Positions 10,097-28,894 of a stretch of 29,521 bases of DNA are shown piece by piece. Under the pieces are notes generated by a model that saw nothing but the letters and a program-made list of their open reading frames with translations, did no database searches and was not told the DNA's origin. The stretch spans positions 1 to 29,521 of IMG/VR virus record IMGVR_UViG_3300040801_003099. The stretch is one strand, 5' to 3'. The position numbers and the translations under genes were made by a program. This DNA comes from a virus. Within the stretch, counting starts at the first letter, position 1, and each line of letters starts with the position of its first letter.

Positions 10097-10462
10097 CTAT
10101 TCAGCAAGGTAAGCACGGATTTTCTCGAGCGCTTTGCCGCCAATACCAATGACCGCCAAAAGCTCATCGTCAGTAGCATTGTTGATAGCATCTACAGAGT
10201 CAAATCCGTCTTCAAGTAGGGCGTCCCGGTAAGGCATGTCTTCAGGCAAGCCCTCCGGTGTTGGCTGCGGCTTTGACTCACTAACAGGCTCAGGCTCGGG
10301 CGTAGGCTTAGCGGGGGGTGTCCCTACTGCTTTAGCCACGCCTAAGCTAATAAGTTCGCGGGCGATGTCATCGTCACAGGAGTAGGTGTAACCCGCTACC
10401 CACGTCTGACGATTACCGCGAACCGTTAGTGAGTGGTCGACGACCATCTCAACTTTGGACAT
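10097..10462 (-). CDS. Capsid-proximal protein with helix-hairpin-helix domain
   Basis: The product is 121 residues. The N-terminal half resembles a small domain containing SCDDDIARELISLGVA. A Pro- and Glu-rich linker (residues ~48-72) follows, then a C-terminal helix-hairpin-helix segment (DELLAVIGIGGKALEKIRAYL). That fold usually contacts DNA without sequence preference, so the protein could touch DNA at the portal. The start overlaps the upstream stop as TAATG. Confidence 0.75.
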   Translation of the reverse strand: MSKVEMVVDHSLTVRGNRQTWVAGYTYSCDDDIARELISLGVAKAVGTPPAKPTPEPEPVSESKPQPTPEGLPEDMPYRDALLEDGFDSVDAINNATDDELLAVIGIGGKALEKIRAYLAE

Positions 10463-22425: not shown

Positions 22426-23070
22426 ATGGCAACAAAAACGCAAACAGGCAAGGTTGTCACGTTTATGAGTTTCGAGCGTGGGCAATCAAAAACGACCCTC
22501 GCACTACACCTTGCAAGTCGCCTCCCCCGTAGCAAGGTGTTTGACTACGACGAAAGCGCAGGAAACCGCTCAGCCAGTCGTATCGTCAACCGTGGCAAAC
22601 AAGCAGGCTCTCCCCTACCCTTTGAAGTCACCAACGACTTAGATGACATCGGTGAAGCGCTTAACACGTACGATTTCATTCTCATTGATACCGAGGGCGG
22701 GCTACCCCTGGATAAAGCCGCCGCACTTAGTGATGGCATCAGCGACGTGATTATCGTTCCCACCAAACTTGATTACGTTTCTATCGAGGGCTGTTTGGAT
22801 GTGATGGACAGTGACTTTGTACGCGACAATAACGCACCTGTGTACGCGCTATTTACGGCAGTTGACAACCACAGCAAACTAGCCGCCTTCCAAGATGAGT
22901 TTGCCCGCCACCACCGCAATACCCTTGAATCGTACTTACCCTTCAACCCCACACTGGCCGACTTGTCGAAGCGTGGCATGACGGCAGATCATGCCCAAAC
23001 CGATAGTGGCTTGCTAGCAGTCCGGCAGGCTTTCGATGCTATCGCGAGTGAGGTGCAGCGCATTGCCTGA
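22426..23070 (+). CDS. parA: ParA-like partition ATPase with altered Walker A
   Basis: The product is 214 residues after GGAGA. The P-loop is SFERGQSKTT (residues 15-24), where the family norm is KGGxGKTT. The signature Lys is Glu here and the second Gly of GKTT is Ser, while the catalytic KTT stays. Walker B is FILIDTEGG at about 84-92. ParA proteins move plasmids or prophage-plasmids by ATP-driven dynamics on the nucleoid. A ribbon-helix-helix gene follows with an overlap, the usual type Ib layout. The changed loop may mean altered nucleotide cycling, or a divergent subfamily. Confidence 0.8.
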   Translation: MATKTQTGKVVTFMSFERGQSKTTLALHLASRLPRSKVFDYDESAGNRSASRIVNRGKQAGSPLPFEVTNDLDDIGEALNTYDFILIDTEGGLPLDKAAALSDGISDVIIVPTKLDYVSIEGCLDVMDSDFVRDNNAPVYALFTAVDNHSKLAAFQDEFARHHRNTLESYLPFNPTLADLSKRGMTADHAQTDSGLLAVRQAFDAIASEVQRIA

Positions 23071-23362
23071 CCCCCTCGAGAACTTACGCCGCGCCAAGCA
23101 GGGTGCAAAAAAATTTCAGACTGAGACTCACATTTCTAGTGAAGTTGAAAGTACAACACCATCAAATGAGCAAAAGCAAGACTCAACAAAACCTGAAACG
23201 CGCAGGCTCACAGTGGATATGGACGCAAAGGATTTTTATGCGTTTAAGAAGTGGTGCTTGCTAGCGGACACGGAGCGCAAAGAAACCGTGAATATGACGG
23301 TAGTCATTAACGCGCTAGTTCGGGGTGTGCTCAATGGGCACATTGACCCATTTGAAGGATAA
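23063..23362 (+). CDS. Ribbon-helix-helix partner of ParA (ParG-like)
   Basis: I place the start at TTG 23063, nine bases after AGGTG; GTG 23048 and ATG 23036 are alternatives. The 99-residue product has a mobile, Lys-, Glu- and Thr-rich N terminus and a C-terminal RHH-like unit (RRLTVDMDAKDFYAFKKWC, then a helix with NMTVVINALVRGVL). ParG-type proteins bind the partition site and stimulate ParA through the flexible tail. The overlap with parA supports pairing. Confidence 0.7.
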   Translation: MPDPLENLRRAKQGAKKFQTETHISSEVESTTPSNEQKQDSTKPETRRLTVDMDAKDFYAFKKWCLLADTERKETVNMTVVINALVRGVLNGHIDPFEG

Positions 23363-23363
23363 C

Positions 23364-23675
23364 GTGACACTTTTACTACTGATAGCAGCCGTTTTGATGA
23401 TTATCGGCATAGTGCGCTTATTGGGGCAGGCACTTAACGCCGCAGTGATTGTGTTAGCCATCGTTTTTGCGTCTATCACAGTATTGCTCACGTCGCAAAT
23501 GAGCCAGTCCGCATTGTCGTTGCGTTATTTCGTTTGGGCAGTACTAGCAAGTGCATTTTGGGGTATGGCGATTGGTGGCGTTCGTTTTTTTAGAAGGGAG
23601 ATAAATGATGCTTGGGCAGTATCCGAAGCGGGCTACGAAAGCGCGTTCTTTGCAGAAGAAGCATGGCAAGAGTAA
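23364..23675 (+). CDS. Small membrane protein, likely three spans
   Basis: The GTG at 23364 follows AAGGA and lies one base past the preceding stop. The product is 103 residues, with hydrophobic segments at about 3-16, 20-36 and 49-67, then a charged tail (FFRREINDAW). It is upstream of an FtsK-like translocase in one transcription unit. Small membrane proteins of this kind accompany TraB-type translocases in mobile elements. The exact role is unknown. Confidence 0.7.
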   Translation: MTLLLLIAAVLMIIGIVRLLGQALNAAVIVLAIVFASITVLLTSQMSQSALSLRYFVWAVLASAFWGMAIGGVRFFRREINDAWAVSEAGYESAFFAEEAWQE

Positions 23676-23982
23676 TAGGTTGGTAAATTACGCGGTCTCG
23701 CTCGAGCAAACTCTCGACCGACTGCTAGATCACCTCGAGCAACCGTATCTCAACAGCGAACAGCGCCAATGGCTGCAAGCTGACCCTGCACGGTGGGCAT
23801 TTTGGCTCGAGGTGATACGCAACCTTGATAACGGACAAGCTGACTTAGCAGATATAACGGCGTACACGTTTTTCAATCGCAACCAGCGCAAGTACCTTGC
23901 CGACGGGCTAAAAGCGCGCAAGATTGCCACACTATCACGTCAAGGTGACGGCGGGACATTCACGCTTTGGGAGGCAAGATGA
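23605..23982 (+). CDS. Hypothetical protein overlapping the membrane protein gene
   Basis: The two ATGs at 23605 have GGGAG five bases upstream, so the 71-base overlap with the preceding gene appears real. The product is 125 residues, basic at the start and helical, ending in a winged-helix-like segment (FNRNQRKYLADGLKARKIATL then GGTFTLWEAR). It may bind DNA. Three CTCGAG hexamers lie within 110 bases. The family is not recognised. Confidence 0.7.
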   Translation: MMLGQYPKRATKARSLQKKHGKSNRLVNYAVSLEQTLDRLLDHLEQPYLNSEQRQWLQADPARWAFWLEVIRNLDNGQADLADITAYTFFNRNQRKYLADGLKARKIATLSRQGDGGTFTLWEAR

Positions 23983-24221
23983 TTAGCCAGTTGTACGTCA
24001 TGGCTACACTCGCAAGCGGTCAAGTTGTCCAGTTTCACCCTGAAAGAATACTGAACCCCGCCCCTGAATACGTCCCTAATCGTATCTATAGCCTTGTGCT
24101 GATTGGCTGGGCGGTGTTTCGTCTGTGGCCTAACTGTGCCAACCAACGCATGCACTCACAGTTAAAAGTCGAATTGCTTTTGTTGGCTGTTGGCGCTGTC
24201 GTTTTGAGGTTCGTGCAATGA
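23979..24221 (+). CDS. Small two-span membrane protein
   Basis: The ATG at 23979 has GGGAGG four bases upstream and shares ATGA with the preceding stop. The product is 80 residues with hydrophobic segments at about 39-53 and 66-79. It overlaps the translocase start by 4 bases, so it may act with that protein at the membrane. Function unknown. Confidence 0.7.
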   Translation: MISQLYVMATLASGQVVQFHPERILNPAPEYVPNRIYSLVLIGWAVFRLWPNCANQRMHSQLKVELLLLAVGAVVLRFVQ

Positions 24222-25510
24222 CTAGCACCCGAAGACAGTTAGAGTTACGCCTCCATGACAAAGGTTTTTTGTGTGGCGTTATGCCTCCCAGAAGTGCGCC
24301 ATCAATCGACATTTACCCAACATTCGTACCGCCTGATGTTGAAATTGACGCCTTAAACCGCAAGCTACCTGAGATTGCGGGGCGTTTAGGATTAGGCGCT
24401 ATTCGCGGTGCGTGGTTGCCTGATGGCTTCTATGGTTTGGAGCTACCACGTGAGCGGCGGCAAAGGGTGGATTTTGAAGCGTTGAACGTGCCTAAAATCG
24501 ATGCGGCTATTCCTTGGCTCATGGGGATTCAAAACGACGGCAAAGTACTGATAAGAGATGTTGCTGATATGCCTCACTTATTAGTTGCTGGTACAACGGG
24601 CGCGGGTAAGTCGAATGCTGTTAGCGCGGCTTTGGCGTGGTTGTTCAAGTACAAGACCCCACAGGATGTGCGCGTGATGTTACTTGATCCCAAACAGACC
24701 GACTTATTGCCGTTCGCATCCGTTCCACATGTGTTTCAACACGTACCTAAACTTGACGATATGCCTACAGCATTAGAGATACTAGTCAACGAAATGCACA
24801 GGCGTTACAAGATGTTTGCCAAAAGTGGCGCAAGAGATTTTACAGGCTATAAAGGTGAGCAGATACCGCGCATCTTGTGCGTAGTCGATGAGCTTGCTTT
24901 AATTATGGACGATCCCAAAATCAAAAAACCTTTTGAAGTCAGCCTTTACCCGCTTTTGCAGGCGGCAAGAGCAGCAGGTATTCACATGATTGTTGCCACC
25001 CAACGACCTGATACAAAGGTTTTGTCTACTCGCTTGAAAGGTAACTTGCCGTGGCGCATCTGCTTTCGCGTGCTTAATCACTACGATAGCGAAGTAGTCA
25101 TGAATGACGGCAGTGCGGCTGGGCTATTAGGACAAGGTGACGGGCTGTTACGTGACTCCGTTTCCCCCTCTCCTATACGCTTTCAAGCACCGTATTTGAG
25201 TGATGATGCGTTAGCGGCAGTTATCAAGACTGCCAGCAAGCATGACGCGGGTGATTGGCAGTTAGAAGGCGCGGCAGATGTGGTGTCGATTCCCGAGGAT
25301 TTACCCGATGTTGACAAAGCCAAGATTCTCATTCAGCGTCTTGATTATGTTTCGACTAAAGACCTGTTAGATGCCAATATCTGCAACTCACGTAGTCAGG
25401 CTAAAAAAGTCTTAAAACAGCTTCGTAACAATGGCTTTATAGGTGGCTATCAAGCGGCTATTGGCAAGTCACCTGTAACCACTAAGAGTGGCTCACTGGC
25501 TACACCCTAA
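24218..25510 (+). CDS. FtsK/SpoIIIE-type DNA translocase
   Basis: The product is 430 residues with Walker A GTTGAGKS at 125-132, Walker B ILCVVDEL at 219-226 and the family segment ATQRPDTKVLS. The C terminus (~370-425) looks like the gamma winged helix (STKDLLDANICNSRSQAKKVLKQ), which in FtsK reads polar DNA signals. There is no N-terminal membrane region; the small membrane proteins coded before and after may supply it. Such proteins pump double-stranded DNA, as in chromosome segregation or TraB-type transfer in mobile elements. No CTCGAG occurs in this gene, unlike most of the window. Confidence 0.9.
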   Translation: MTSTRRQLELRLHDKGFLCGVMPPRSAPSIDIYPTFVPPDVEIDALNRKLPEIAGRLGLGAIRGAWLPDGFYGLELPRERRQRVDFEALNVPKIDAAIPWLMGIQNDGKVLIRDVADMPHLLVAGTTGAGKSNAVSAALAWLFKYKTPQDVRVMLLDPKQTDLLPFASVPHVFQHVPKLDDMPTALEILVNEMHRRYKMFAKSGARDFTGYKGEQIPRILCVVDELALIMDDPKIKKPFEVSLYPLLQAARAAGIHMIVATQRPDTKVLSTRLKGNLPWRICFRVLNHYDSEVVMNDGSAAGLLGQGDGLLRDSVSPSPIRFQAPYLSDDALAAVIKTASKHDAGDWQLEGAADVVSIPEDLPDVDKAKILIQRLDYVSTKDLLDANICNSRSQAKKVLKQLRNNGFIGGYQAAIGKSPVTTKSGSLATP

Positions 25511-25598: not shown

Positions 25599-26183
25599 AT
25601 GCCCAAAAAACAAGCCAAAAACACCGACATCGTGACATGGCAGGACAACGCGTCCAATGGATTCACACGCGGCATCATTTCGCACAACGTACCGCGTCCG
25701 CACTTCATCGAAATCAGCCCGAACGGTAAGTGGCTACTACTCACGATTGATGATGACGATCAGCCCGTACACATCGCAGGCGGTAAGGCTAAAGATATTG
25801 CTCGAGCCAAGGCAGAGGTACGGGCACACGCTATCACTAAAATTCCAAGCCTCAAAGCAGCTATCAAGGAAGTTGAAGAAGCCGAACAGCCCGAAAAAAC
25901 ACCCGTATTGATAAGCGCACGGCGTGCCACCGTCAGGATGTATGCAGCCTTAACAGCGGCAGTGCTGTGGGTCGGTTGGGGGTTCTACTGGTTTGCGCGT
26001 ATTCGTCCAAAAACCGCCACACTCACCATTATCATTGTGGCAGTTGCGGCGTTTGCTGCTACCAAGATTATTGACTGGCTTGACGACAAAAACGCCAAAC
26101 GTGTACGCCTTATTAAACGTCAACAAGCAGAGCAGATGGTCAAGGCGGCGCAAGCGCAACGTCAGCCTGCTATGAGGCGATAA
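25599..26183 (+). CDS. Two-span membrane protein
   Basis: The product is 194 residues. Residues 1-~105 are soluble, ending in an acidic helix. Two membrane segments (about 113-131 and 139-157) follow, then a basic helical tail with many Gln and Arg. The 88-base gap upstream holds a small hairpin and GGGGAGG about 12 bases before the ATG. It lies between the translocase and the large disordered protein and may be a membrane anchor for either. The family is unknown. Confidence 0.7.
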   Translation: MPKKQAKNTDIVTWQDNASNGFTRGIISHNVPRPHFIEISPNGKWLLLTIDDDDQPVHIAGGKAKDIARAKAEVRAHAITKIPSLKAAIKEVEEAEQPEKTPVLISARRATVRMYAALTAAVLWVGWGFYWFARIRPKTATLTIIIVAVAAFAATKIIDWLDDKNAKRVRLIKRQQAEQMVKAAQAQRQPAMRR

Positions 26184-27415
26184 TGGCGTGGGATATGGAG
26201 AAATGGCAACCAAGTAACGAGTTGGCAGAAACGGACGATACAAGCGCGTTTGATGAGCCTGAGATTGTTGATGCTGATTGGTCGTATGTCGAACCTGAAC
26301 CCGCTTATGACGTTGCTGAATATGAAGTTGATGACGACTACGATAATTATGCGCTGCAACCCGAGCCTGAACCACAGCAAAACGGTTGGGGTTGGGGTGG
26401 CAGCCTTGTGGAATACGAAGAGCCTAGTGTCGTTGACGTGCCATTTTCGTTTTTGCAGCCGGATGAAAGTCAGTTACCCGTCAAGCGGTCTAGTTGGGGT
26501 TGGGGTGGCAGCACTAGTAATGAAATTGAGCCGTATGAGGATGACACAACCTCTGAAGAAATTGAACGTTACACATCGGCATGGTTTGAAAGTGATCCTG
26601 ACACCGTGGACGCCGATTATGAATACATTGACCCCGAAACGCGCGGGTTAGAAAATCCTTACCAACGGTCTACCGATGATTTTTTTCGCACTGTTGAGGT
26701 AGGCGAAAACCCTGAACCAGCACCGTCTTTTAATCCGTTTGCAGGGTTCTTTGGGCAGTCGTCTACATCGCAAAAGAATGACACATGGCAAGGTAGCAGC
26801 AACAAGACATCATCGAACTCCAAGCCAAAACAGCGCAATGATAGCAGCGTGCGTAGCCATGCAAGCACACATCAAAGCACGGGTAGCTTTACGGGTAGTA
26901 GCACGAATAACGCTACAGGAAGCGCCACAGGTAGTAGCACAAGCAATCGTACGCGCAACCATACACAACCACAAACACAAACACGTGCACCACTAAGTGC
27001 ACCCAATAAAACGCAAACAATACATCCACAAAAGGGCGTTAAGCCGTCAGACAGGGGGAAAGGCGGCGCTGATAAGGATTATCCTTGGTATTTTTTAGCC
27101 TATCCTGACCCGCGTGAAGATGAAGATGTGCAATACCTGAGGTACTGGTATCTTTTTCAGCAATACAGTGAAGGCGTTGTTGAATGGGATGAACCAAAAT
27201 TTCACGACTGGATTGCATCACTTAAAGGTGCTGATAGAGACTTGTATGTTGATGCGGGCAAACAAGTAGCAGACCAAGAGGTGTTCGACCAGTTGCAAGA
27301 TGGCACACTCAAAAAAGCCATGACAAGCATGAGGCTCGAGGGTGACGACGGCGCACCCGCCTACAAAGACCCTGTTGGGCATTTTTCAGCTTGGGTATTG
27401 CGTGGTTTTAGTTGA
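26183..27415 (+). CDS. Large, mostly disordered acidic protein
   Basis: The product is 410 residues. Residues 1-~175 are very acidic (Asp/Glu/Tyr/Pro) and hold two copies of GWGWGGS or WGWGGS about 36 residues apart. Residues ~185-290 are Ser-, Thr-, Asn- and Gln-rich with repeated TGSSTN-like units. The last ~115 residues look folded, with aromatic-rich YPWYFLAYPD and YLRYWYLFQQY. No enzyme motif is seen. Such layout fits a scaffold, tether or condensate-forming protein. Its start overlaps the preceding stop. A GG-periodic array follows its stop. Confidence 0.75.
   Translation: MAWDMEKWQPSNELAETDDTSAFDEPEIVDADWSYVEPEPAYDVAEYEVDDDYDNYALQPEPEPQQNGWGWGGSLVEYEEPSVVDVPFSFLQPDESQLPVKRSSWGWGGSTSNEIEPYEDDTTSEEIERYTSAWFESDPDTVDADYEYIDPETRGLENPYQRSTDDFFRTVEVGENPEPAPSFNPFAGFFGQSSTSQKNDTWQGSSNKTSSNSKPKQRNDSSVRSHASTHQSTGSFTGSSTNNATGSATGSSTSNRTRNHTQPQTQTRAPLSAPNKTQTIHPQKGVKPSDRGKGGADKDYPWYFLAYPDPREDEDVQYLRYWYLFQQYSEGVVEWDEPKFHDWIASLKGADRDLYVDAGKQVADQEVFDQLQDGTLKKAMTSMRLEGDDGAPAYKDPVGHFSAWVLRGFS
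26385..26512. repeat. Exact 20-base G-rich direct repeat inside a coding gene
   Basis: GTTGGGGTTGGGGTGGCAGC occurs identically at 26385-26404 and 26493-26512, coding the WGWGGS motifs. The exact DNA identity, including wobble bases, points to a recent duplication or to selection on the DNA itself. Confidence 0.7.
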
Positions 27416-27437: not shown

Positions 27438-27512
27438 AAGGTTCGGCTAGGCAGTGTAAGGCTAGGTCAGGTTGGGACTGGTAAAATGCGGTTGGTAATG
27501 GTTCGGTATGGA
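27438..27512 (+). repeat. GG-periodic pentamer array 1
   Basis: GG occurs at first positions 27440, 27445, 27450, 27460, 27465, 27470, 27475, 27480, 27490, 27500, 27505 and 27510, which is 12 of 15 places in a strict 5-base register. The flanking bases vary. A short palindrome (ATAACA-A-TGTTAT, 27424-27436) precedes it and a terminator follows. It lies in the 3' untranslated region of the disordered protein gene. The rest of the 267-base gap up to 27682 holds that terminator, a promoter and a leader hairpin. Confidence 0.8.
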
Positions 27513-27516
27513 TAAA

Positions 27517-27543
27517 GGGGTTGCTTAGGTAGCCTCTTTTTTT
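27517..27543 (+). terminator. Intrinsic terminator after array 1
   Basis: GGGGTTGC pairs with GTAGCCTC (three G-U pairs) around TTAG, followed by seven T. Confidence 0.8.
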
Positions 27544-27563
27544 ATTACAACTGCACTTGTATC

Positions 27564-27592
27564 TTGCTAGTAGCGACAAAACAAGGTATAGT
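27564..27592 (+). promoter_or_regulatory. Promoter for the HNH gene unit
   Basis: TTGCTA (27564-27569), a 17-base spacer and TATAGT (27587-27592) fit a sigma70-type promoter just past the terminator. Confidence 0.65.
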
Positions 27593-27596
27593 AAAG

Positions 27597-27626
27597 GTGC
27601 TTCACGGGATGGCACTCCCCAAGCAC
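27597..27626 (+). promoter_or_regulatory. Structured 5' leader hairpin before the HNH gene
   Basis: GTGCTT pairs with AAGCAC, with an inner GGGA-TCCC pair set, at the predicted 5' end of the transcript. A second small stem (GGAAA with TTTCC) follows near 27631-27647. Confidence 0.5.
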
Positions 27627-27682
27627 TCTAGGAAAGGATTGGTTTCCCAGCATGGCTATTCTACCCCTAAAAACTTAACAAC

Positions 27683-28075
27683 ATGTCTAATCGGTATGAA
27701 GCATATATTGCATCCGAGTCATGGCGTCGTAAGCGTCAAGCAGTGCTCGAGCGTGATAACCATCAGTGCCAAACGTGTTTAGCCACAGAGCGTTTAGAGG
27801 TGCATCACAAGACCTATAGCGCCCTTGGTAATGAACCGTTAGAAGATTTAATCACGCTGTGCAAAGACTGTCATTTCGCTATTACTACGTCAATTCGTGA
27901 GCGGCGCTATCACAAGCGTGCCACGTTTGAATCGGGTGGTATCAAGGCTTCAATTCCACAATTTCAGGACAAGCGCAGACAAAAAACGTTTGTGACTGAA
28001 AGCAATCTCGGTAGCACCCCAAAACCGAAAGGACATGAATATGCACAAAACTTTGACGTTCAAATTGACAAGTGA
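27683..28075 (+). CDS. HNH endonuclease
   Basis: The product is 130 residues with a classic HNH domain: C29-x2-C32, LEVHHKTY with His41/His42, NE at 50-51, and LC-x2-CH at 60-64. It should cut DNA with a metal ion. Phage HNH proteins can assist packaging, act as homing enzymes or join recombination; this one is far from the terminase genes. No Shine-Dalgarno is visible before its ATG. An 8-codon frame (27652-27678) ends 4 bases earlier and may couple translation. The last 35 bases overlap the next gene. Confidence 0.85.
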   Translation: MSNRYEAYIASESWRRKRQAVLERDNHQCQTCLATERLEVHHKTYSALGNEPLEDLITLCKDCHFAITTSIRERRYHKRATFESGGIKASIPQFQDKRRQKTFVTESNLGSTPKPKGHEYAQNFDVQIDK

Positions 28076-28619
28076 AGCGCCCATCTTGCTTCACAACGGA
28101 CAACTCGCAGACCCCACAAACAAGTGGGCAAAAGAAATGAAAAAGATTAGCTCCAAGCGCAACAAAACCGAGTCTGACTTTGAAGAATTGGCGCGGCTTG
28201 AGTGGCTTGGCAGTTTGTACACTAACAAAGCTAGTCAGGTTGTTATCCCTGACATGGTTGTGACGGCGGCGCTGCTTGCAGGCGCTAAGAAGTTTCGACT
28301 AGGCAAGCAAGCACAAGCGGGGCTGTTCGTTTTCGAGCACGCACGCCTTGAGTTTGATGGTGATGATTTACCACTGAAAGAACTTTGGGAACGCGATGAA
28401 AACCGCTTTACAGTAGGCGTGAACGTACAACGCTCCAAAGTTATGCGCACACGCTTTATTGCGCATGAATGGCAGTTGATTGTGCCTGTGACCTATGAAG
28501 ATTCTTTGTTGAATGAAAGCCAAGTGCTTGAGATTGCAGACGCTGCAGGCACACAGGTTGGTTTGTGCGATTGGCGTCCAAGGTACGGACGGTTCACACC
28601 TCAGCTTTTGACTGACTAG
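28041..28619 (+). CDS. Conserved phage protein of unknown function
   Basis: The ATG at 28041 has AAAGGA seven bases upstream; ATG 28035 is too close to the site. The product is 192 residues. The pattern (APILLHNGQLADP, a long Lys-rich helix, ELARLEWLGSLY, then VMRTRF and DWRPRYGRFTPQ) matches a conserved protein I have seen in many phages and mobile elements, usually annotated as hypothetical. I recall no firm function. It is co-transcribed with the HNH gene and followed by array 2. Confidence 0.75.
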   Translation: MHKTLTFKLTSEAPILLHNGQLADPTNKWAKEMKKISSKRNKTESDFEELARLEWLGSLYTNKASQVVIPDMVVTAALLAGAKKFRLGKQAQAGLFVFEHARLEFDGDDLPLKELWERDENRFTVGVNVQRSKVMRTRFIAHEWQLIVPVTYEDSLLNESQVLEIADAAGTQVGLCDWRPRYGRFTPQLLTD

Positions 28620-28625
28620 GTAACA

Positions 28626-28719
28626 CTTTCAGGGTTGGGTCAGGTTTGATTTGGCGAGTCACGCTTGGGTCGGGTAAGGTCGGATGCAATTAGGTCTGGT
28701 CTGGCAAGGCATGGATAAC
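28626..28719 (+). repeat. GG-periodic pentamer array 2
   Basis: GG starts at 28633, 28638, 28643, 28653, 28668, 28673, 28678, 28693, 28698, 28703, 28708 and 28713, 12 of 17 register positions. Four of the other five places still have G first. It opens with CTTTCAGGGTTGG, identical to the opening of array 3, and ends ATGGATAAC. It begins right after the stop at 28619. The 300-base gap 28620-28919 is filled by arrays 2 and 3 and their hairpins. Confidence 0.85.
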
Positions 28720-28722
28720 ACA

Positions 28723-28744
28723 ACCCGCGTGTAACAGCGCGGGT
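28723..28744 (+). terminator. Terminator-like hairpin after array 2
   Basis: ACCCGCG pairs perfectly with CGCGGGT around 8 bases. The following bases (ACTATTTAAC, then a T-rich tract near 28765-28774) make a weak tail, so it may be a terminator or a stable transcript end. Confidence 0.55.
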
Positions 28745-28770
28745 ACTATTTAACTGTTTGAGTTATTTTT

Positions 28771-28864
28771 CTTTCAGGGTTGGATATGGTATGGCGAGGC
28801 GATGTTGGGCGGGGCATGATCTGGCATGGCGAGGTACGGTCAGGCGCAGCAAAGCATGGGTAAC
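28771..28864 (+). repeat. GG-periodic pentamer array 3
   Basis: GG starts at 28778, 28788, 28793, 28798, 28808, 28813, 28823, 28828, 28833, 28838, 28843 and 28858, 12 of 17 register positions. It opens with the same 13 bases as array 2, offset by exactly 145 (29 x 5), and ends ATGGGTAAC. A terminator follows, then the gene at 28920, so it may lie in that gene's leader. Confidence 0.85.
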
Positions 28865-28867
28865 ATC

Positions 28868-28894
28868 ACAGCACTCTTAGCGGGTGCTGTTTTT
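28868..28894 (+). terminator. Intrinsic terminator or attenuator after array 3
   Basis: ACAGCAC pairs with GTGCTGT around 9 bases and five T follow. The next gene's GGAG lies about 17 bases past the T-run, with no promoter visible between. Confidence 0.8.

What the first reader, a model, noticed from the sequence alone, without database searches (positions are those of the whole stretch)
27438..28864. Three arrays of GG with a strict 5-base period in the gaps of the plus-strand module
In three intergenic stretches GG falls on a fixed 5-base register at 36 of 49 positions (12 of 15, 12 of 17, 12 of 17), while the other bases vary. Arrays 2 and 3 open with the same 13 bases (CTTTCAGGGTTGG) and all three end in ATGG(A/G)TAA. 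Unit numbers are alike and all have the G-rich strand on plus. A 5-base period is not coding and does not match CRISPR or the usual iteron form. I know of no described element of this form. Possible readings, all inference: an RNA target of a ring-shaped binding protein (TRAP reads triplets spaced by two bases, also period 5); a chain of two-layer G-quadruplexes (GG with 3-base loops); a Rho loading site on the C-rich opposite strand; or polar DNA signals for the nearby FtsK-type translocase.
Basis: partly seen in the sequence, partly recalled or inferred. Interest (0 to 1): 0.9.

Follow-up and report, generated by a model that had tools for sequence, protein, structure and literature searches.

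The report
Phage VIPR guide-RNA arrays with HNH
The three GG-every-five-bases arrays are guide RNAs of a phage-encoded VIPR system, a relative of CRISPR first described in a 2026 preprint that phages use against rival phages; this one also carries a predicted DNA-cutting (HNH) partner gene, and its own targets are not yet known.

Summary
GG falls on a 5-base register at 12/15, 12/17 and 12/17 positions, only on the plus strand; 0 of 20,000 dinucleotide shuffles matched any array. The arrays are the guide-RNA genes (vrRNAs) of a VIPR system (PMC13142463, 2026 preprint). The 194-aa protein beside them (28035-28619) is Vipr: it matches the solved SUSP1 Vipr (PDB 36pp, E=1.5e-21) and its predicted structure is Cas7/Csm3-like. 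In 101 of 106 related loci such arrays lie within 3.5 kb of vipr, on its strand. GGY is constant, NN free. The preprint's reading rule was tested on loci fetched here and holds: reading NN pairs with one skipped target base gave 20 guides with 5 or fewer mismatches, against 1-2 in controls. Matched genes include portal and terminase genes of related phages, mostly with the skipped base at the wobble position. The window belongs to a clade in which an HNH nuclease gene overlaps vipr (89/106 loci), mostly in viral contigs. The window's own targets were not found; array 1 has a weak near-match in its own genome. This is a new member of a known kind. Worth following is the phage-borne HNH clade that appears to target packaging genes of near relatives.

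The parts
27440..27539 (+). vrRNA 1: 13 variable GGYNN units (27440-27504), conserved 3' end GGTATGGATAA (27505-27515), terminator hairpin (27514-27539)
28626..28744 (+). vrRNA 2: shared leader CTTTCAGGGTTGG (28626-28638), units from 28633, conserved 3' end GGCATGGATAA (28708-28718), hairpin 28723-28744
28771..28890 (+). vrRNA 3: shared leader CTTTCAGGGTTGG (28771-28783), units from 28778, conserved 3' end GCATGGGTAA (28854-28863), terminator 28868-28890
28035..28619 (+). vipr: 194-aa RAMP (Cas7-like) guide-RNA-binding protein, phrog_4652
   Evidence: SUSP1 Vipr (PDB 36pp) E=1.5e-21 with the single sequence, 7.5e-53 with the profile; AlphaFold2 pLDDT 93.7; best PDB folds are Csm3/Cas7 subunits
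27683..28075 (+). HNH endonuclease gene whose 3' end overlaps the start of vipr by 41 bases; candidate vipr-accessory protein (vap)
   Evidence: homologue directly upstream in 88 of 106 vipr loci, HNH and zinc-ligand residues kept in 70-72 of 72 distinct sequences
23231..23268 (-). weak near-self match of vrRNA 1 under the one-base-skip rule (19 of 26 NN bases), inside ORF 23036-23362 next to a parA-like gene; skip base at codon position 3; a lead only
   Evidence: permutation p 0.014-0.024, uncorrected for three guides; not significant for the other skip lengths

Best explanation
The locus is a phage-borne VIPR system. Each array would be transcribed as a guide RNA (vrRNA) of about 100 bases that ends in a hairpin. 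Vipr, a Cas7-like RAMP, is expected to coat the RNA with one subunit per GGY-NN unit, hold the GGY and present the NN pairs, which then pair with DNA in the pattern NN-x-NN-x (two bases read, one skipped). The guides would direct the complex to genes of competing phages, where it represses transcription (shown for other VIPRs in the preprint) or, in this clade, brings an HNH nuclease to the DNA (inferred). Shown here: Vipr homology and fold, array-vipr linkage, the GGY/NN make-up, the one-base-skip signal and wobble phase in relatives, and the HNH partner with conserved active-site residues. Inferred: transcription and processing in this phage, one subunit per unit, HNH recruitment and cutting, and the identity of this phage's own targets.
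For: Window protein vs SUSP1 Vipr E=1.5e-21 over residues 5-193, profile 7.5e-53. Predicted structure pLDDT 93.7; best PDB fold matches are type III Csm3 and type VII Cas7 subunits, E 3e-5, probability 1.00. In 106 vipr loci 258 arrays lie on the vipr strand and 3 on the other, all 258 within 3.5 kb of vipr; control contigs 1 array in 420 kb. Entropy per unit position 0.47, 0.88, 1.50, 1.97, 2.00 bits over 218 distinct arrays. Best target with 5 or fewer mismatches: 20 guides with skip 1, against 2 (skip 0), 1 (skip 2), 2 (permuted) and 2 (reversed). Skip base at codon position 3 for 16 of those 20. Target genes include portal, terminase large subunit and dCTP deaminase of related phages. Published mechanism: PMC13142463.
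Against: No convincing target of the window's own three guides was found: exact 8-unit seeds in IMG/VR, loci of relatives and 49 whole records for vrRNA 1. Arrays 2 and 3 have 5 of 17 slots without GG. There is no expression evidence. The host is unknown, so its mobile elements could not be searched.
Confidence: 0.95

Rival explanations
1. TRAP-like regulation: the array is an RNA leader or 3' UTR wrapped by a ring protein that controls the neighbouring terminators; the spacer bases carry no information.
For: Period 5 with fixed triplets and free spacers, arrays next to terminators, and an adjacent RNA-binding protein.
Against: The protein is a 194-aa Cas7/Csm3-like RAMP. The spacer dinucleotides of relatives match phage genes under the one-base-skip rule far above permuted controls, so they do carry information.
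Confidence: 0.02
2. Chain of two-layer G-quadruplexes acting as an RNA or DNA structure.
For: GG runs with 3-base loops could form two-layer quadruplexes.
Against: A pyrimidine follows GG in most units (position 3: C 53%, T 35%), which a quadruplex does not need; it does not explain linkage to vipr or target matches.
Confidence: 0.01
3. DNA signals for the nearby FtsK-like translocase, or Rho loading on the opposite strand.
For: An FtsK/SpoIIIE-family gene lies at 24218-25510.
Against: Arrays track vipr in 101 of 106 loci, and are confined to within 3.5 kb of vipr, not spread along the genome.
Confidence: 0.01
4. VIPR system in which the HNH gene is a functionally unrelated neighbour (homing or packaging HNH) and silencing is by binding alone.
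For: Phage HNH genes are common and mobile; in 22 loci a terminase gene is also close.
Against: The HNH is kept directly upstream in 88 of 106 loci, with its 3' end running into vipr in all 89 loci that have it, in several contexts: terminase, portal, tape measure, neck, and, in the window, 10 kb from the terminase.
Confidence: 0.25

Closest known systems
VIPR (Viral Interference Programmable Repeat) systems, SUSP1 and P. fulva clades (PMC13142463)
   Same: Vipr RAMP homologue, arrays of GGY/NN units followed by a structured 3' tail, several arrays around vipr on the same strand, one-base-skip reading recovered in relatives.
   Different: Upstream HNH gene overlapping vipr, where the preprint gives type II (SUSP1) a predicted DNA-binding vap; Vipr only about 28-35% identical to the non-HNH clade; frequent non-GG slots; matched genes in the clade include portal and terminase, where the preprint reports satellites and lysogeny regulators for the two clades it analysed.
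VIPR types III-V (nuclease or helicase vap genes)
   Same: A predicted nuclease as partner.
   Different: The preprint places types III and V in host defence islands; here the system sits among phage structural genes. The type could not be assigned because the supplementary data were not available to me.
Class 1 CRISPR-Cas (type III Csm / type VII backbone Cas7)
   Same: Cas7-like fold; guide RNA read in periodic segments.
   Different: No repeat-spacer array; period 5 with two read bases, not period 6 with five.
TRAP (MtrB)
   Same: RNA triplets at period 5.
   Different: Different protein fold and size; the triplet is GGY, not (G/U)AG; the spacers carry information.

Membership tests
VIPR | Vipr protein, an ancestral RAMP of about 20 kDa | tested here: met
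   SUSP1 Vipr E=1.5e-21; Csm3/Cas7 fold; 194 aa
VIPR | vrRNA of 9-16 YNNGG repeats, GGY conserved and NN hypervariable | tested here: met
   13-15 variable units in each of three arrays; clade entropies 0.47/0.88/1.50/1.97/2.00 bits
VIPR | Constant structured 3' tail after the repeats | tested here: met
   All three end ATGGRTAA followed by a hairpin; hairpin sequences differ between arrays; no covariation test or pseudoknot search done
VIPR | Arrays in intergenic stretches next to vipr | tested here: met
   258 arrays in 101 of 106 loci
VIPR | One-base-skip target rule | tested here: inconclusive
   Supported for relatives of the same clade; for the window's own guides no target found, one weak near-self match p about 0.02
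VIPR | vrRNA expression and co-purification with Vipr | not testable with these tools
   needs RNA and protein work
VIPR | vap accessory gene | tested here: inconclusive
   HNH gene overlapping vipr, conserved in the clade; whether it is one of the named vap families could not be checked
CRISPR-Cas class 1 | Repeat-spacer array with Cas1/Cas2 | tested here: not met
   The arrays are GGYNN units, not repeat-spacer; no CRISPR family in the Rfam scan. Cas1/Cas2 was not searched for as such; the window proteins scanned gave no such hit
TRAP (MtrB) | TRAP fold and (G/U)AG triplets | tested here: not met
   Csm3/Cas7 fold; GGY triplets

The most novel reading that the evidence does not exclude
A large phage-borne VIPR clade carries an HNH nuclease and uses it against near-relative phages by targeting packaging genes (portal, terminase), sparing its own diverged copies through NN mismatches. 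This differs from the preprint's picture, in which nuclease VIPRs are host-defence systems and the phage VIPRs tested act by repression.
Probability: 0.4. Interest if true: 0.6.

Novelty: new member of a known kind. Interest (0 to 1): 0.42.

Why it matters
It puts a puzzling repeat into a newly found class of RNA-guided systems, and the VIPR reading code, tested here as a rule taken from the preprint and also against alternatives, holds by computation in a clade other than the two that the preprint's main text analyses in detail. The HNH-vipr gene pair in phages suggests that some phages may cut, and not only silence, their competitors. The cross-targeting of portal and terminase genes makes exclusion between close phage relatives testable.

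Tried and rejected
Exact 8-unit seeds of the three guides in IMG/VR: 43 stretches, flanks at chance; 33 of them belong to vrRNA 2 and fall mostly in a few families of near-identical sequence. Seed built on the near-self site: two contigs with the same 19/26 match and none of the seven missing bases gained. Relatives of the near-self gene and of the ParA-like gene: none in IMG/VR, none convincing in plasmids. vrRNA 2 vs portal genes of L066/L068 at 22/30: skip base at codon position 1 and not clearly above chance, so rejected. vrRNA 3 vs L146, L147 and L015 at 22/30: not accepted, two of the three were selected by an exact seed and the third is out of wobble phase. Rfam: no match in the window or seven relatives. 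Host inference from the major capsid protein: hits scattered over phyla, no close relative. BLASTN of arrays 2-3 against phages: nothing, as expected for hypervariable NN.

Full report
Observation. The three arrays are present as described. GG occupies 12/15, 12/17 and 12/17 slots of a 5-base register. No dinucleotide-preserving shuffle (0 of 20,000 for each array) reached the observed 15-slot count. Besides period 10 (the double), the only other strong GG run in the window is a period-6 one inside a coding region at about 10.2 kb; the minus strand has none at period 5. The unit is better written GGYNN. Each array is followed by an RNA hairpin, with a T run behind arrays 1 and 3.

Partner protein. 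The gene that ends just upstream of array 2 (28035-28619) belongs to phrog_4652, of unknown function. Relatives were found in 11 IMG/VR contigs, 129 GenBank phages (among them Felixounavirus wV8, Gordonia Trine, Mycobacterium LittleE and Pseudomonas LESphi2), 13 bacterial genomes and 397 IMG/VR stretches by profile, the best 80 kept. All seven annotated phage loci fetched carry period-5 GG arrays on the strand of this gene; the wV8 record annotates repeats there as DR_4. Over 106 loci, 258 arrays lie on the gene's strand, all within 3.5 kb of it, and 3 on the other; 101 loci have at least one. Control contigs: 1 array in 420 kb.

Identity. The idea that the arrays are noncontiguous guides of a RAMP-like protein was written down before the literature search. 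The search then found the VIPR preprint (PMC13142463): a Vipr RAMP protein, vrRNAs of GGY/NN units, and recognition of double-stranded DNA with one skipped base. The window protein matches the solved SUSP1 Vipr (PDB 36pp) at E=1.5e-21 and by profile at 7.5e-53. Its AlphaFold2 model (pLDDT 93.7) is most like Csm3 and type VII Cas7 subunits. No other paper on VIPR was found in the library.

Test of the code. The one-base-skip rule was taken from the preprint and tested on loci fetched here, with the other skip lengths as controls. From the 106 loci I extracted 218 distinct arrays. Unit positions 1-5 have entropies 0.47, 0.88, 1.50, 1.97 and 2.00 bits. Searching each guide's NN string against all loci, skip 1 gave 20 guides with at most 5 mismatches; skip 0 gave 2, skip 2 gave 1, permuted units 2, reversed units 2. 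For 16 of those 20 the skip base is codon position 3. The matched genes include portal, terminase large subunit and dCTP deaminase genes of related phages. Thirteen of 223 guides have a near match in their own locus (under 28% mismatch), against 1 of 1,115 permuted; for all 20 guides listed, the best own match is worse than the best foreign one. I read this as guides aimed at homologues of a gene that the phage itself carries in diverged form. Homologous targets are not independent, so the counts are by guide, and related guides may still be counted more than once.

The HNH clade. In 89 of 106 loci a homologue of the window's HNH gene (27683-28075) is present, 88 times directly upstream on the same strand; in all 89 its 3' end runs into the vipr reading frame, by 41 bases in the window. 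Residues C29, C32, H41, H42, D55, C60, C63 and H64 are kept in 70-72 of 72 distinct sequences. In the Vipr tree the HNH loci fall in one 70-row part (support 100/99) that also holds two rows without a detected HNH; 15 other loci without HNH form the rest (the root is a midpoint, for drawing only). The HNH-vipr pair lies near terminase, portal, tape-measure or neck genes in different phages, so I take it as a unit and not as part of a packaging module.

Targets of the window itself. None was found with confidence. vrRNA 1 matches its own genome at 23231-23268 (minus strand) with 19 of 26 NN bases, in the gene after a parA-like gene, with the skip base at codon position 3; permutation p is 0.014-0.024, before correction for three guides. 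By analogy with the relatives this may mean that the real target is the same gene in a competitor, but that is a lead only.

Verdict. Real, and a member of the VIPR systems described in 2026. New here, as far as I could check, are the phage-borne HNH clade with its packaging-gene targets and the near-self matches.

Noticed in passing
L043:4232-4983; L034:2798-3205; L054:1798-2083: Long runs of GGYNN units: L043 has ten arrays in a row joined by short linkers such as TGATNATTCAT, L054 has arrays of 26-30 units, L034 overlapping near-copies. Perhaps the staggered arrays mentioned in the VIPR preprint.
   Followed up: no
window 10215-10320: GG with period 6 on plus (10 of 15 slots), inside the minus-strand ORF 10097-10462, which encodes a proline-rich stretch; a coding repeat, not an array.
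   Followed up: partly
window 22426-25510: ParA-like gene and FtsK/SpoIIIE-like gene in the same strand block, suggesting a plasmid-like lifestyle; no ParA relative found in IMG/VR or the plasmid collection.
   Followed up: partly
L019 (Escherichia phage wV8): Repeats beside wV8 gp95 were deposited as DR_4 without explanation; they fall at the 3' ends of vrRNA-like GGYNN arrays that share a tail.
   Followed up: partly
L036:1448-2022: In the closest Vipr relative of the window (61% identity) vipr is split over two frames, a possible frameshift in the contig.
   Followed up: no
window 26183-27415: A 410-aa ORF with a long low-complexity Ser/Thr/Asn-rich stretch and no PHROG or Pfam match lies directly upstream of array 1.
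   Followed up: partly
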